Assembly (NCBI RefSeq): GCF_018219455.1
Contig: NZ_CP056122.1
Coordinates: 3,348,001 to 3,412,000 of the forward strand
DNA: 64,000 nucleotides
DNA from: Moritella sp. 5
GTDB lineage: Bacteria; Pseudomonadota; Gammaproteobacteria; Enterobacterales; Moritellaceae
Direction: 5' to 3'
The translations under genes and the position numbers were made by a program. The first letter of the stretch is position 1. The number at the start of each line of letters is the position of its first letter. The notes beneath the pieces were generated by a model that had not been told where the DNA came from, ran no database searches, and saw only the letters and a program-made list of their open reading frames with translations. This document shows, in pieces, positions 16,105-21,745 of the stretch.

Positions 16105-16135
16105 TTAAGCACTCAACTTCAGTTTGAGTGCTTAA
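16105..16135. terminator. Hairpin between fadD and the histidine-kinase array
   Basis: Arms 16105-16116 and 16124-16135 form a perfect 12-bp stem with a 7-base loop between convergent genes. It overlaps the last codons of the histidine kinase, whose final residues differ from the other two copies here. No T-run is present. Confidence 0.4.
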
Positions 16136-17522
16136 ACTTAACGACAAACATAGCGCCACCCAACTCACTAGTGCCAATATTAATCTCCGCCTTCATTGTT
16201 TTAACTATCGTATTTACAATCGCTAAACCTAAGCCAAAACCACCCGTTTGCCGGCTTCGGCTGTTATCTAAACGTGTAAAGGCATCCAATACTTGTTCAC
16301 GTTGTAATGGTGAAATACCTTCCCCATCATCTTCAACAACAATACTGAAATATTCAGGATCATTTTTAAGGCTAAGCTTGACGGTTGAATCCGCATATAA
16401 ACACGCATTTTTCACCAAGTTATCAACAATAAGTTGCAGGTAACGAGGATTTGCATCAACCCTAACCGTATCGATATCTGAAAAGAGAGAGACATGGAAG
16501 TATTGGCGCTGGAATTCAATTTCACGTGATTGCATCAACTCACTTAAATCGACGATTTGATGTGCCGAAGAGGGTTTATGTTCAATCGTTTGTAACATCA
16601 AAATATCATTGGCCAACGCTTCCATTTCAACCGCATAACGACTTAGATCACTATGTAACTCCGCAGTGTACGAGCTATGCTCTTCATTACTCAATAATCC
16701 CATCACTAATTGAATTCGCGTTAACGGTGTGCGTAATTCATGCGCAATTGCATTGGCCATAACCTGTTGTTGATGCTGTGAGTACTGCAAGGATATCGCC
16801 ATCTCATTGAAACTTGCTGCCATTTGATTTAAGGGAGCGGGTATTTTATCGTCAACTCGCGTATCGAGCTGGCCATCTGCTAAGGCTAAACTCGCGGTGC
16901 TCAAGCGATAAACATGATCAGATATATTTTTGACCGAGGAATACAACACTAATGCGATACTCGAGAAGATAAAACCCAATAGAAATAGTTCTGGCCCACT
17001 ATCTTCCCAATCCTCTGAATCATCCATAGAATAAATCATTTCAGGATTGTCAATGATGAGTAACAAACCATCATTGTGCGGGAGGACCGCAGCAAGAAGA
17101 TCATTCTCTTCTTCGGTATGTAAATATACCCCTATCTTACCAATTTCTGCTGGTAAAAGCGGAGTATCGCTCACCTCGTTAAGATTGATTTCGTATAATA
17201 ATTCATGCTGCTGCTGATAATCAAATGCTTGTTTAGCGGTCATTTTTTTAATAGTAAAACCGGTGACTTTATTCAGTAATTCCACCGCGATGTTCCAACG
17301 GTCAGTATCTTCGACAAAATCATCGAGTAATACTGCCGTAAAACTAACGTCATGTACAAACCCAGTATCAGTATTGTCATAATAATTAATTAACATAGTA
17401 ACAAACACAATACTACCAATAATGACGGCAGTAATACTGATATACAATTTAAAAAAAAGCGTATGTGCCATATTACGGTTTATTATTCGATTAAGATTAG
17501 TAAACATATTATTGCTTAACAA
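16119..17522 (-). CDS. RstB-like sensor histidine kinase, copy 3 of a tandem array
   Basis: 467 residues: helix about 22-47, a periplasmic domain 48-178, helix about 179-197, HAMP, phospho-acceptor His261 in AHELRTPLTRI, N-box DNLVKNACLY, G1 EDDGEGIS and G2 GGFGLGLAIV. An acidic stretch (MDDSEDWEDSGPE) sits just outside the second helix. The kinase half is nearly identical at DNA level to the two upstream copies; the periplasmic half has diverged. The start is TTG at 17522 (an ATG lies five codons on), overlapping a remnant of the response-regulator tail exactly as the first kinase overlaps the real regulator. The last residues (KFKHSN) differ from the other copies. Confidence 0.85.
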   Translation of the reverse strand: MLSNNMFTNLNRIINRNMAHTLFFKLYISITAVIIGSIVFVTMLINYYDNTDTGFVHDVSFTAVLLDDFVEDTDRWNIAVELLNKVTGFTIKKMTAKQAFDYQQQHELLYEINLNEVSDTPLLPAEIGKIGVYLHTEEENDLLAAVLPHNDGLLLIIDNPEMIYSMDDSEDWEDSGPELFLLGFIFSSIALVLYSSVKNISDHVYRLSTASLALADGQLDTRVDDKIPAPLNQMAASFNEMAISLQYSQHQQQVMANAIAHELRTPLTRIQLVMGLLSNEEHSSYTAELHSDLSRYAVEMEALANDILMLQTIEHKPSSAHQIVDLSELMQSREIEFQRQYFHVSLFSDIDTVRVDANPRYLQLIVDNLVKNACLYADSTVKLSLKNDPEYFSIVVEDDGEGISPLQREQVLDAFTRLDNSRSRQTGGFGLGLAIVNTIVKTMKAEINIGTSELGGAMFVVKFKHSN

Positions 17523-17559
17523 ATAGGTAGCCCTTACAACGGATTGTTTTAGTGATTTG
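17509..17559 (-). pseudogene. Remnant of response-regulator C-terminus (17 codons)
   Basis: Read on the minus strand this gives QITKTIRCKGYLFVKQ plus a stop. The intact regulator at 20514-21218 ends QIIKTIRCKGYLFVKQ plus a stop. The frame is intact but there is no start. It shows that the duplicated unit contained the regulator's tail plus the kinase. Confidence 0.85.
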
Positions 17560-17637
17560 CGAGGGAAGTGCTATAGGCAGTGAGCAAAGCCCTAAGCGAT
17601 ACTAACAAACCTTTGCATTTAAATCACTACACCTAAA

Positions 17638-19050
17638 TTAAACAACGTGTCTAAATCTAACGACAAACATAGCGCCACCCAACTCACTGCTGCCAATATT
17701 AATCTCCGCCTTCATTGTTTTAACTATCGTATTTACAATCGCTAAACCTAAACCAAAACCACCCGTTTGCCGGCTTCGGCTGTTATCTAAACGTGTAAAG
17801 GCATCCAATACTTGTTCACGTTGTAATGGCGAAATACCTTCCCCATCATCTTCAACAACAATACTGAAATACTCAGGATCATTTTTAAGGCTAAGCTTGA
17901 CGGTTGAATCCGCATATAAACACGCATTTTTTACCAAATTATCAACTATAAGTTGCAGGTAACGAGGGTTTGCATCGACTCTAACCGTATCGATATCTGA
18001 AGAAAGCAATACTCTAGGATATTGGCGTTGAAATTCAATTTCACGTGATTGCATTAACTCACTTAAATCGACGATTTGATGCGCCGATGAAGGTTTATGT
18101 TCAATCGTTTGTAACATTAAAATATCATTAGCCAACGCTTCCATTTCAACTGTATAACGGCTTAAATCATTATGTAATTCAGTCGTATATGTACTATGTT
18201 CCTCATCACTTAATAATCCCATCACTAATTGAATTCGTGTTAACGGTGTACGTAACTCATGCGCAATTGCATTGGCCATAACCTGTTGTTGATGCTGCGA
18301 GTGCTGCAATGATATAGCCATCTCATTAAAACTTGCCGCCATCTGGTTTAACGGGGCTGGTATTTTATCGTCAACTCGAGTATCTAACTGCCCGTTTGCT
18401 AAGGCTAAACTTGCAGTGCTCAACCGATAAACGTGATCAGATATATTTTTTACTGAGGCATACAGCACCAAAGCAATACTCAAAAAGATAAAACCTAATA
18501 AAAATAGCTCAGGATAATTATCTTCCAAATCTTCAGGTCCATCTATCGGGTACGCCTCTTCTAAACGGTCAATAATGAGCAATAACCCTTCATGATGCGG
18601 AATGATAATAGCAAGACGTCCACTTTCTTCTTCATGTCGATATACATACACCCCCCATTTACCAATCCCTGCAGGTAATGGTGGGTAGTTTATATTTTGC
18701 TTTATATCAATTTCGTCCAACATTTCATGCTTTTGATGATATGCCAATGCATTTTTCACCGAGATAGTTTCAATAGTAAAACCTGTGAACCGACTCAATA
18801 AGTCTACTTCCATATTCCAATCGTCAGTACTTGCGGTAAAGTCATCAAGTAGTGTGGCAGCAAAGCTAGCATCGTGCACAAATGCATCATTATTAAGATT
18901 ATCATAGTAGTAATCCATAACTAACGAAACAATGACAATACTAGCTATAATAACAGTGCTAATACTGATATATAGCTTAAAGAAAAGCGTATTTGCCATA
19001 TTACGATTGATAGATTGTTTAAGATTAGAAAACATATTATTGTTTAACAA
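17638..19050 (-). CDS. RstB-like sensor histidine kinase, copy 2 of a tandem array
   Basis: 470 residues with the same architecture as its neighbours: two helices around a ~135-residue periplasmic sensor, HAMP, HisKA with AHELRTPLTRI, and HATPase with DNLVKNACLY, EDDGEGIS and GGFGLGLAIV. The kinase part differs from the flanking copies at only scattered positions (for example DEEHSTYTTELHND against NEEHSSYTAELHSD). The sensor has its own sequence, with IDGPEDLEDNYPE before the second helix. TTG start at 19050, overlapping a second regulator-tail remnant. It is 115 bp upstream of copy 3. Confidence 0.85.
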   Translation of the reverse strand: MLNNNMFSNLKQSINRNMANTLFFKLYISISTVIIASIVIVSLVMDYYYDNLNNDAFVHDASFAATLLDDFTASTDDWNMEVDLLSRFTGFTIETISVKNALAYHQKHEMLDEIDIKQNINYPPLPAGIGKWGVYVYRHEEESGRLAIIIPHHEGLLLIIDRLEEAYPIDGPEDLEDNYPELFLLGFIFLSIALVLYASVKNISDHVYRLSTASLALANGQLDTRVDDKIPAPLNQMAASFNEMAISLQHSQHQQQVMANAIAHELRTPLTRIQLVMGLLSDEEHSTYTTELHNDLSRYTVEMEALANDILMLQTIEHKPSSAHQIVDLSELMQSREIEFQRQYPRVLLSSDIDTVRVDANPRYLQLIVDNLVKNACLYADSTVKLSLKNDPEYFSIVVEDDGEGISPLQREQVLDAFTRLDNSRSRQTGGFGLGLAIVNTIVKTMKAEINIGSSELGGAMFVVRFRHVV

Positions 19051-19088
19051 ATAGGTAGCCCCTTACAACGAATTGTTTTAATTATTTG
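19037..19088 (-). pseudogene. Second remnant of response-regulator C-terminus, with one-base insertion
   Basis: The minus strand encodes QIIKTIRCKG, then an extra G in a G-run shifts the frame; skipping it gives YLFVKQ and the stop. It is 52 bases against 51 in the intact gene. It precedes kinase copy 2 with the same 14-bp overlap as the real regulator-kinase junction. Confidence 0.85.
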
Positions 19089-19120
19089 CTCGGGGAGTGC
19101 TATAGCCAGTGAACAAAGCC

Positions 19121-20527
19121 CTAAGCGATACTAACAACGTGCCTAAACCTAACGACAAACATAGCGCCACCCAACTCACTGCTGCCAATATTAATCTCCG
19201 CTTTCATTGTTTTAACTATCGTATTTACAATAGCTAAACCTAAACCAAAACCACCCGTTTGCCTGCTTCGGCTGTTATCTAAACGTGTAAAGGCATCCAA
19301 TACTTGTTCACGTTGTAACGGCGAAATACCTTCTCCATCATCTTCAACAATAATACTGAAATACTCAAGATCACTTTTTAGGCTAAGCTTGACGGTTGAA
19401 TCCGCATATAAACACGCATTTTTCACCAAATTATCAACTATAAGTTGCAGGTAACGAGGGTTTGCATCAACCCTAACCGTATCGACATCTGAAGAAAGCG
19501 AGACACTAGGATATTGGCGTTGAAATTCAATTTTACGTGATTGCATCAACTCACTTAAATCGACGATTTGATGCACCAATGAAGGTTTATGTTCGATCGT
19601 TTGCAACATCAAAATATCATTGGCCAACGCTTCCATTTCAACCGTGTAACGGCTTAAATCATTATGTAATTCAGTCGTATATGTACTATGTTCTTCATCA
19701 CTTAATAATCCCATCACTAATTGAATTCGCGTTAACGGTGTGCGTAACTCATGCGCAATTGCATTGGCCATAACCTGTTGTTGATGCTGTGAGTACTGCA
19801 AGGATATCGCCATCTCATTAAAACTTACCGCCATTTGATTTAAGGGGGCGGGTATGTTGTCGACAACCCTTGTATCGAGCTGACCATTTGCTAATGCCTG
19901 ACTTGCCAAACTCAATTTATAAACATGATCGGATATATTTTTCACAGCGACATACAGCACTAATGCGATACTCAAAAAGATAAAGCCCAATAATAAAAAT
20001 AAAGCATCGTTATCGTCATCAGGCCCCTCCATGGGTGCATCCATACTAGAAATAGTATCAATAATGAGTAGTGACTTGTCATAATACGGGATGATTACAG
20101 CCAAGCGTTCATCATTAGCGTTAGCGTTATCATATACATGCACGCCGCCCCTACCAATACCAATAGGTAAAGGTGGTGTATCGTTATCCTGATCAATAAC
20201 ATCCAATAATTCATGTCGTTGGTGATATTTTAATACTTCTTTCGCGGATAACGTTTGAATTGAAAAACCCGTGAATTGACTTAATAGATCCACTTCCATA
20301 TCCCAGCGTTCACTACCTTCCTCAAAATTATCCAGTAAACGTGCAACAAAATTAGCATTGTATACAAATTCAGCATTGTTAAAATAATTGTAAATGATGA
20401 TTACAAATAATACTATGCTACCAATGATTACGGTCGTAATACTGAGATACAGCTTAAAAAAAAGTGTATGACCCTTATTACGGTTTATTACTCGATTGAG
20501 ATTAGTCAATATATTATTGTTTAACAA
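19121..20527 (-). CDS. RstB-like sensor histidine kinase, copy 1 next to the regulator
   Basis: 468 residues, same domain order as the two downstream copies. The sensor holds ARLLDNFEEGSERWDMEVDLL and an acidic stretch (MEGPDDDNDA) before the second helix. H-box AHELRTPLTRI, G1 EDDGEGIS and G2 GGFGLGLAIV are intact. The TTG start at 20527 lies 14 bp inside the response-regulator gene, so translation is coupled. This copy is the likely founder of the array. It would autophosphorylate and pass phosphate to the regulator; the signal is unknown, though acidic membrane-proximal patches bind cations in PhoQ (inference). Confidence 0.87.
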   Translation of the reverse strand: MLNNNILTNLNRVINRNKGHTLFFKLYLSITTVIIGSIVLFVIIIYNYFNNAEFVYNANFVARLLDNFEEGSERWDMEVDLLSQFTGFSIQTLSAKEVLKYHQRHELLDVIDQDNDTPPLPIGIGRGGVHVYDNANANDERLAVIIPYYDKSLLIIDTISSMDAPMEGPDDDNDALFLLLGFIFLSIALVLYVAVKNISDHVYKLSLASQALANGQLDTRVVDNIPAPLNQMAVSFNEMAISLQYSQHQQQVMANAIAHELRTPLTRIQLVMGLLSDEEHSTYTTELHNDLSRYTVEMEALANDILMLQTIEHKPSLVHQIVDLSELMQSRKIEFQRQYPSVSLSSDVDTVRVDANPRYLQLIVDNLVKNACLYADSTVKLSLKSDLEYFSIIVEDDGEGISPLQREQVLDAFTRLDNSRSRQTGGFGLGLAIVNTIVKTMKAEINIGSSELGGAMFVVRFRHVVSIA

Positions 20528-21218
20528 AAAGGTAGCCCTTACAGCGAATTGTTTTGATAATTTGATACGGTGCTACATCATCTTTTATCTTTTTACGTAA
20601 ACTGGATAAGCGCATATCCAACGCTCTATCCAAGCCATCAAATTCAACCCCTTTTAATGCCTGATAACACTCATCACGACTAACAATTGTTCCCGCTTGT
20701 TTTGCTAAATATTCCAACATTTCATATTCTGCACCGGTTAAGATAATCTCTTCATTATCACGGGTAACCAAACGCTTCAATGTATCTATCGTTAACGTAC
20801 CAGTATGACTTAACGCATTATCATTTTTCTTACTTCTGCTTTCGCGGCGTAACAATGCTTCAATATGAGAGAGTAAAATATGCGGTCGTAACGGTTTATG
20901 CAGATAACCATCAGCGCCCGTATCCAACGCTGCAATCTCAGATATTTCTTCACTGCAAGCGGTAAGCATAATAATAGGCCCAGTATAAGTTTCACGACTT
21001 TGCTTACACACTTCAATACCGTTCATACCCGGCATCATAATATCTAATACCACGAGATCAGGCTGTAATCTGGCGATATCTGCGAGTCCATCTGTACCAT
21101 TATTACTGAGTGATACTTGATATCCTTTAGTGCGTAAAAACATGTCGAGAAGACGACAAATCTCTAAATCATCTTCAACAATTAAAATGTGTTTTTTGCC
21201 ATTTTCTAACATGTTCAA
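20514..21218 (-). CDS. RstA-like OmpR-family response regulator
   Basis: 234 residues. The receiver domain has EDD near residue 15, phospho-acceptor Asp in VVLDIMMPG (about residue 59), Thr in MLTACSE and Lys in LHKPLRP. The C-terminal winged helix (TLTIDTLKRLV..., LTGAEYEMLEYLAKQAG, GLDRALDMRLSSLRKKI, IIKTIRCKGYLFVKQ) follows RstA. The start may be TTG at 21218, with AAGG five bases upstream, or ATG two codons later. It is the only regulator for three kinases downstream and overlaps the first by 14 bp. Targets unknown; autoregulation is likely for the class. Confidence 0.87.
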   Translation of the reverse strand: MNMLENGKKHILIVEDDLEICRLLDMFLRTKGYQVSLSNNGTDGLADIARLQPDLVVLDIMMPGMNGIEVCKQSRETYTGPIIMLTACSEEISEIAALDTGADGYLHKPLRPHILLSHIEALLRRESRSKKNDNALSHTGTLTIDTLKRLVTRDNEEIILTGAEYEMLEYLAKQAGTIVSRDECYQALKGVEFDGLDRALDMRLSSLRKKIKDDVAPYQIIKTIRCKGYLFVKQ

Positions 21219-21745
21219 AGAAACCTTATGTCATTATAAATAAGTAAAATACAGGGATAAGAAAACACTTAAGCGCTAGGTAAGTTTAGTTCACTATCAT
21301 TTAGTCTAATGGTATGAATATTTATCAGTGCCATTGCAGTTATTACCTGAGATATGGCTATTATTTGTACCCGTGAAACGTATCGACTGCAAATATTGTA
21401 ATTTTTCGGTATAACCCAAGTATAGCGATCAAATAATAACCCTAACAATACTGTAATACTAACGAATTTGGTTATATGAATGCCTTTGCACTATGACGTA
21501 TGAATAACAACGCAATCATATAAAACAAAACGTAAGCTTTCAGTCTCTAATTTGTCAGCTTTGTCAGCTTTGTCAGTGGTAATCAAGCAGCCAGTCAATT
21601 TTTTTATAAACTACTGTAATTTTATCAGTGTTCCCCTACTTAATATCTATACAGACGGTATAATTACGCTAAAATACAATCCTAATGACCTTGGCTTTAA
21701 ATCGTGCTTGCAGAAACAGCAAGCATGCTTCAGATAAGAGTAAAC
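21219..21745. other. Intergenic region between regulator and dinG, with short tandem repeats
   Basis: About 530 bp between divergent genes, AT-rich. It holds a 9-bp unit TTTGTCAGC repeated nearly three times at 21551-21576. A 21/22-bp unit starting CATGCTT is duplicated at 21724-21744 and 21745-21766, giving two in-frame ATGs for dinG. No gene or RNA could be supported. Confidence 0.5.

What the first reader, a model, noticed from the sequence alone, without database searches (positions are those of the whole stretch)
16119..21218. One response regulator feeding three tandem histidine kinases with near-identical cores and divergent sensors
Three full-length RstB-like kinases follow a single RstA-like regulator on the same strand. 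From HAMP onward the three proteins and their DNA are almost identical, while the periplasmic domains differ widely in sequence. This is the pattern expected if three inputs converge on one regulator and the cores are kept alike by recent duplication or gene conversion. All catalytic motifs look intact in each copy.
Basis: partly seen in the sequence, partly recalled or inferred. Interest (0 to 1): 0.75.

Follow-up and report, generated by a model that had tools for sequence, protein, structure and literature searches.

The report
One regulator, three mosaic sensor kinases
A marine bacterium carries three side-by-side sensor proteins whose outer, sensing halves have drifted far apart while their inner, signalling halves have stayed almost the same, at least partly through gene conversion, apparently so that three different inputs can feed one gene regulator.

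Summary
On the minus strand one OmpR-type regulator (20514-21218) is followed by three intact kinases: HK1 19121-20527, HK2 17638-19050, HK3 16119-17522. A second Moritella genome (JT01) has the same array, so it is no assembly error; the other 9 of 11 genus genomes have one kinase.

Corrections. Sensors are homologous (51-58%). DNA near-identity starts after the HAMP. 'Recent duplication' does not fit the sensors: paralogue pS is 0.64-0.75 there, 0.04-0.30 in the cores. HK1 and HK3 sensors pair by position across the two species, while HK1 and HK2 cores group by genome (AU tests reject the alternatives, p<=3e-14): gene conversion around a protected sensor. HK3's core is homogenised less recently.

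Both gaps are scars: a lipoprotein-gene start joined to the regulator's tail. So lipoprotein-regulator-kinase modules were probably repeated and the spare regulators deleted, leaving one regulator with three kinases. HK2 has the ancestral-type sensor; HK1 and HK3 are the divergent ones.

Convergence on one regulator is inferred; no biochemistry was available. A new variant of a known kind.

The parts
20514..21218 (-). OmpR/PhoB-type response regulator (RstA-like), the only one in the array
   Evidence: orthologue in all 10 other genus genomes held (89-97% identity)
19121..20527 (-). HK1, divergent-sensor kinase; overlap with the RR ORF suggests translational coupling; its last residues (VSIA) read into the lipoprotein-start remnant
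17638..19050 (-). HK2, kinase with the ancestral-type sensor (66-81% to the nine single kinases)
16119..17522 (-). HK3, second divergent-sensor kinase
20012..20401 (-). HK1 periplasmic sensor region (about residues 43-172): divergent island
18520..18924 (-). HK2 periplasmic sensor region (about residues 43-177)
17001..17396 (-). HK3 periplasmic sensor region (about residues 43-174): divergent island
19121..19801 (-). HK1 homogenised DHp + ATPase core
17638..18309 (-). HK2 homogenised DHp + ATPase core
16119..16790 (-). HK3 DHp + ATPase core (homogenised, less recently; short divergent patches)
19048..19141 (-). Scar HK1-HK2: lipoprotein-gene start remnant + regulator-tail remnant carrying the kinase start region
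17520..17658 (-). Scar HK2-HK3: same composition, with the lipoprotein ATG (MQRFVSIA) still readable
21333..21469 (-). Decayed remnant of the lipoprotein gene upstream of the regulator; the well-supported piece is 21333-21419 (E 3e-6), the rest is weak (E 0.26)

Best explanation
A two-component module (lipoprotein - regulator - kinase) was repeated in tandem, probably in the ancestor of a three-species Moritella group. Spare lipoprotein and regulator copies were then deleted, leaving one regulator with three kinases in two species and with one kinase in the third (G009). The three periplasmic sensors diverged; HK2 kept the ancestral type, HK1 and HK3 moved further at protein level. Recombination between copies has kept the DHp-ATPase cores alike, for HK1 and HK2 separately in each species, and in G005 also the start region of HK1 and HK2. 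[Supported by comparison; the module repeat is the simplest reading of the scars.] Mechanistically, three kinases with different sensor faces and nearly the same signalling face should phosphorylate and dephosphorylate the same regulator, which then integrates three inputs; HK1 is probably translationally coupled to the regulator, and HK2 and HK3 start from retained copies of the regulator's 3' end. [Inferred.] Ligands are unknown.
For: RR present in 11 of 11 genus genomes; three kinases in 2 of 11, one in 9 of 11. Sensor identity by position G000/G005: 85, 79, 88%; the nine single kinases are 66-81% to HK2, 52-60% to HK1, 55-64% to HK3. Paralogue pS: sensors 0.64-0.75, cores 0.04-0.30; G000/G005 background RR 0.27, helicase 0.20, acyl-CoA ligase 0.14. 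AU tests: four of four within-genome sensor clades rejected (p 4e-33 to 6e-67); HK1 and HK3 sensor pairs 100/100 and 100/99; core HK1 and HK2 orthologue clades rejected (2.8e-14, 2.6e-66); G000 HK1+HK2 (100/98) and G005 HK1+HK2 (100/99) supported in the core. Informative sites HK1/HK2 from codon 261 on: 27 concerted, 1 orthologous, 0 cross; codons 41-200: 1, 100, 2 (my sums). Scars match lipoprotein start and RR tail above all 1000 shuffles in 4 of 4 gaps. Intact lipoprotein follows the kinase in G009 and precedes the regulator in five other congeners. DHp: HK1 = HK2 over 64 residues, HK3 differs at five.
Against: No expression, binding or phosphotransfer data. The HK2 sensors of G000 and G005 do not form an exclusive pair: they group with G009's kinase (83/97), the pair being neither in the best tree nor rejected (p 0.108), and G000 HK2's sensor is more diverged from G005 HK2 (pS 0.38) than HK1 or HK3 are (0.14-0.15). 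HK3's core is not shown to be converted since the split: site patterns from codon 261 on are 3:9:5 (HK1/HK3) and 5:8:3 (HK2/HK3) concerted:orthologous:cross; the three-core clades of each genome are neither supported nor rejected (p 0.10, 0.09). The start region is not homogenised in G000 HK1/HK2 (63-87%). The lipoprotein matches of the G005 scars are only just above the best shuffle (32 vs 27, 29 vs 26). Eight of ten congeners have one kinase and a ninth, G009, seems to have lost the extras, so the extra inputs are dispensable.
Confidence: 0.72

Rival explanations
1. Recent triplication followed by very rapid (positive) selection on the sensors only, with no gene conversion.
For: Cores are nearly identical; sensor pN is high (0.28-0.32 between G000 paralogues); HK1 and HK3 have long stems in the sensor tree.
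Against: Selection on protein does not by itself raise synonymous change: sensor pS is 0.64-0.75 but core pS 0.04-0.30 in the same genes. HK1 and HK3 sensors predate the G000/G005 split, yet HK1 and HK2 cores group within genomes. Pairwise NG86 dN/dS in the periplasmic part is below 1 in the pairs where it is defined.
Confidence: 0.05
2. Sensor import: diverged sensor segments were swapped in from kinases of other bacteria onto copies of one kinase.
For: Sharp boundaries between divergent and near-identical DNA; sensor divergence as great as between species groups.
Against: HK1 sensor matched in 11 of 394 order genomes, all of the genus, at E<=1e-3; HK3 sensor in 1 of 369 class genomes, the own one. 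The seven sensors of the three-species group stand together in the DNA tree, though weakly (83/97; protein tree neutral, p 0.46). Import from within the genus is not excluded.
Confidence: 0.12
3. Decaying redundancy: tandem duplicates kept alike by frequent recombination and on the way to loss, as in G009, with no selected three-input function.
For: Only 2 of 11 genomes have the array; G009 has one kinase; recombination between near-identical cores easily deletes copies.
Against: All three ORFs are intact in both species, with sensor dN/dS of 0.20-0.48 between orthologues, which indicates constraint on each sensor since the split.
Confidence: 0.18
4. Negative or modulatory sensors: HK1 and/or HK3 act mainly as phosphatases or as inhibitory heterodimer partners of HK2 rather than as independent kinases.
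For: Nearly identical DHp regions should allow cross-dimers and all keep the HELRT motif (its role in phosphatase activity recalled).
Against: No direct evidence; kinase motifs are also intact.
Confidence: 0.2

Closest known systems
RstB/RstA two-component system (NCBIfam NF007898 / NF007977)
   Same: Best-ranked family for HK cores and RR; RR-HK operon with a membrane HAMP/HisKA kinase.
   Different: Far below equivalog cut-offs; the match starts after the sensor; three kinases per regulator; own genome has a second RstAB-like pair.
CpxA (closest solved cytoplasmic structure by sequence, 4biu)
   Same: HAMP-DHp-CA part, E = 8.5e-34 over profile positions 209-464.
   Different: Only the core is related at sequence level; no CpxP-like partner was looked for.
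Several-kinases-to-one-regulator networks arising by kinase duplication
   Same: A review says that duplication of one gene of the operon gives pathways with more than one kinase (PMC8895600, passages read).
   Different: Here whole modules were probably repeated and spare regulators lost, with scars still legible, and cores are homogenised while sensors are not.
Duplicated EnvZ/OmpR systems that become insulated (PMC9208753, abstract and passages read)
   Same: Starts from the same kind of event, duplication of an RR-HK operon.
   Different: There a few mutations separate the pathways; here regulator copies are gone and kinase interfaces stay alike, the opposite outcome.

Membership tests
RstB/RstA equivalog | Curated NCBIfam scores (RstA 330 bits, RstB 478 bits) | tested here: not met
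   RR 193.8; HK1 191.2, HK2 183.3, HK3 179.8 bits, each still the best-ranked family
RstB/RstA equivalog | RstB-type periplasmic sensor | tested here: not met
   NCBIfam RstB match begins at residue 178, 182 and 179, after the sensor; a remote fold relation was not tested
RstB/RstA equivalog | RstA-box (consensus recalled) near the operon | tested here: not met
   6 matches with up to 2 mismatches in 64 kb against 10.9 expected, none inside 16119-21700
Orthodox HisKA-type transmembrane histidine kinase | HAMP, HisKA and HATPase_c with intact motifs | tested here: met
   (HAMP under its cut-off)
Several-kinases-to-one-regulator network | One regulator gene with several adjacent co-directional kinases sharing the DHp region | tested here: met
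Several-kinases-to-one-regulator network | Each kinase phosphorylates the same regulator | not testable with these tools
   needs phosphotransfer assays
Tandem paralogues in concerted evolution | Paralogues within a genome closer than orthologues between genomes at the DNA level | tested here: met
   met for HK1/HK2 cores in both genomes; not shown for HK3; HK1 and HK3 sensors show the opposite
Assembly artefact | Array confined to one assembly | tested here: not met
   same array in G005/JT01; copies differ throughout the sensors

The most novel reading that the evidence does not exclude
The near-identical DHp and ATPase halves allow the three kinases to form mixed dimers, so three genes make up to six receptor species (three homo-, three heterodimers) with combined sensor faces. 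Gene conversion is selected because it preserves this cross-compatibility: a natural case of active anti-insulation, in which a fixed signalling chassis carries a diversifying sensor cassette between recombining flanks.
Probability: 0.2. Interest if true: 0.78.

Novelty: new variant of a known kind. Interest (0 to 1): 0.5.

Why it matters
Duplicated two-component systems are usually discussed as becoming insulated from each other. This locus points to another outcome, with sequence traces of each step: repeat the module, delete the spare regulators, let the sensors diverge, keep the kinase cores interchangeable. Congeners with one kinase and an ancestral-type sensor are natural controls, so one can test whether convergence onto one regulator is selected and whether heterodimers matter.

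Tried and rejected
Artefact: rejected, since a second genome has the same array. Recent duplication with fast sensors: rejected on synonymous sites. Sensor import from other genera: no donor in the 394 order genomes (HK1 sensor) or 369 class genomes (HK3 sensor) sampled; import from within the genus not excluded. RstA-box search: below chance. Promoter and terminator scan: 16 and 3 found against 23.0 and 4.2 in shuffles, uninformative. Structure prediction of HK1 and HK2 with nine-row alignments gave mean pLDDT 54.7 and 55.0; I did not search with these models and take from them only a weak hint of an alpha-alpha-beta-alpha-beta topology in the sensor. Independent deletion of the spare regulators in the two species was considered because the scar junctions differ, but a small later deletion in G005 would explain it too, so it is not claimed. 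The order survey with HK2 scored only four candidates per genome at E<=1e-38, so it does not exclude similar arrays elsewhere; no survey of tandem kinase arrays in general was made. Literature: eight searches, listings with titles and starts of abstracts seen; passages read only in PMC9208753 and PMC8895600. Judged from titles and abstract starts, nothing on this locus or on concerted evolution of kinase cores appeared (searches returned no paper), which is not proof of absence from print.
Full report
OBSERVATION. The window lies in a single-contig genome (4,991,674 bp, window = C1:3348001-3412000). All four genes are on the minus strand: regulator 20514-21218, HK1 19121-20527, HK2 17638-19050, HK3 16119-17522. 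Domains are ordinary: Response_reg + Trans_reg_C, and HAMP (under its cut-off), HisKA, HATPase_c. The genome has 31 HisKA matches; the only ones within 2 kb of each other are these three.

WHERE IT IS FOUND. An orthologous regulator (89-97% identical) exists in all 10 other genomes held for the genus, flanked by the same helicase and acyl-CoA ligase genes. G000 (the window) and G005 have three kinases; the other nine, including the close relative G009, have one. Contig lengths link G005 to Moritella sp. JT01, G004 to PE36, G007 to DT_65 and G001 to M. dasanensis.

MOSAIC. Sensors compared by position between G000 and G005 share 85% (HK1), 79% (HK2) and 88% (HK3). Within a genome the three sensors share 51-66%. 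The nine single kinases are 66-81% identical to G000 HK2, but 52-60% to HK1 and 55-64% to HK3: HK2 is the ancestral type. Nonsynonymous difference from three single kinases (G010, G003, G001) is 0.13-0.18 for the HK2 sensors but 0.23-0.30 for HK1 and HK3, at similar pS. In the core (HAMP onward) paralogues share 90-95%, orthologues 92-94%, and the three-species group against other species 73-82%. Synonymous differences tell the history: sensor paralogues pS 0.64-0.75, near saturation; core paralogues 0.04-0.30; background between the two species 0.14-0.27. Low synonymous change in the core argues against protein constraint as the cause of its identity.

GENE CONVERSION. In the quartet of HK1 and HK2 from both genomes, informative sites from codon 261 on are 27 concerted, 1 orthologous, 0 cross; in codons 41-200 they are 1, 100 and 2 (my sums over its 20-codon windows). 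AU tests reject HK1 and HK2 orthologue clades in the core (p 2.8e-14 and 2.6e-66) and the four within-genome clades tested in the sensor (p 4e-33 to 6e-67). In the sensor the HK1 pair (100/100) and HK3 pair (100/99) are clear; the HK2 pair is not exclusive, since G009's kinase joins it (83/97; pair p 0.108). HK3's core is different: it is much closer to its paralogues than its sensor is (pS 0.17-0.30 vs 0.64-0.75 in the two genomes), but site patterns show no conversion since the split (3:9:5 and 5:8:3), the HK3 core pair is in the best tree with weak support (46/82), and the within-genome three-core clades are neither supported nor rejected (p 0.10, 0.09). The first 25 or so codons are homogenised in G005 HK1/HK2 (93-100% DNA identity) but not in G000 HK1/HK2 (63-87%). 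TM2 + HAMP is divergent in five of the six within-genome pairs (pS 0.53-0.68) and homogenised only in G005 HK2/HK3 (0.22).

SCARS. In the window the HK2-HK3 gap holds the first codons of a lipoprotein gene (MQRFVSIA) and the last part of the regulator gene; the HK1-HK2 gap holds the same pieces, and HK1's last residues read into the lipoprotein remnant. The two G005 gaps hold a lipoprotein signal-peptide piece and a regulator tail with another junction. Local alignment scores exceed all 1000 shuffles in 4 of 4 gaps for both templates; for the lipoprotein in G005 the margin is small (32 vs 27, 29 vs 26). The intact lipoprotein (about 400-570 aa, weak sub-cut-off RTX calcium-binding match in the three proteins scanned) stands just upstream of the regulator in G003, G006, G007, G008 and G010, and just after the kinase in G009. 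Decayed pieces lie upstream of the regulator in G000, G005 and G009, and as a second copy in G008 and, weakly (E 0.05), G006; none was listed at this place in G001, G002 and G004. The simplest reading: lipoprotein-regulator-kinase modules were repeated, then lipoprotein and regulator were lost between kinases. The retained regulator tail carries the presumed ribosome-binding site and TTG start of the next kinase (sequence reading, inference). Whether the loss happened once or in each lineage is open.

AGE. The seven kinases of the three-species group stand together in the sensor DNA tree (83/97, not starred; protein tree neutral, p 0.46). So the duplication probably lies on the stem of that group, and G009 later lost the HK1 and HK3 types. 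An older duplication with more losses is not excluded, since synonymous sites are saturated. One irregularity: G000 HK2's sensor is further from G005 HK2 (pS 0.38) than G005 HK2 is from G009 (0.17).

FUNCTION. Sensor dN/dS between orthologues is 0.45 (HK1), 0.20 (HK2), 0.48 (HK3) (NG86, periplasmic part), against 0.12-0.19 in their cores: faster, but below 1, so each sensor is under constraint. The DHp region is identical in HK1 and HK2 over 64 residues and differs at five in HK3. With only one regulator in the array, common docking on it is the expected result; it is inferred. In all 15 kinases compared the 32 residues before TM2 are acidic (7-13 D+E against 0-2 K+R), reminiscent of cation-sensing surfaces such as PhoQ's (recalled), a lead only.

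KNOWN. RstB and RstA are the best-ranked families but far below their cut-offs, and the sensor is outside the match. A review already states that duplication within an operon can give more than one kinase per pathway (PMC8895600, passages), and work on duplicated EnvZ/OmpR studies how copies become insulated (PMC9208753, abstract and passages). What seems unusual here is the combination: loss of spare regulators with legible scars, and conversion of cores in two species around protected sensors. I rate it a new variant of a known kind.

Noticed in passing
L040:6963-8162 (G009); L043:2501-4207 (G006); window 21333-21469: A lipoprotein with weak RTX-like calcium-binding match travels with the regulator-kinase pair in this genus (not searched outside it), in a 400-aa form and a 570-aa form with an extra N-terminal part; decayed in the window, with more distant paralogues elsewhere in the genome (C1:2205833-2207008, C1:3681616-3682179).
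   Followed up: partly
L144:1563-3588 (G000:C1:1398062-1400087): A second RstAB-like regulator-kinase pair in the same genome (regulator 46% identical); its RstA/RstB scores (174.0, 169.6 bits) are slightly lower than those of the array.
   Followed up: partly
window 16108-16133: Perfect 10-bp inverted repeat (seen by eye) at the end of HK3, between the convergent ends of HK3 and the acyl-CoA ligase gene; the terminator scan did not list it.
   Followed up: no
G009 HK (L040:5408-6847) and G005 HK2 (L082:7001-8422), segment before TM2: The acidic stretch before TM2 carries extra residues in these two kinases compared with the others (alignment).
   Followed up: no
window 16119-21218, starts of the four ORFs: TTG is the first start codon of all four ORFs; the kinases share a putative AAGGG ribosome-binding site that lies inside the regulator's last codons or their remnants (sequence reading); HK2 and HK3 also have an ATG at codon 6.
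   Followed up: partly
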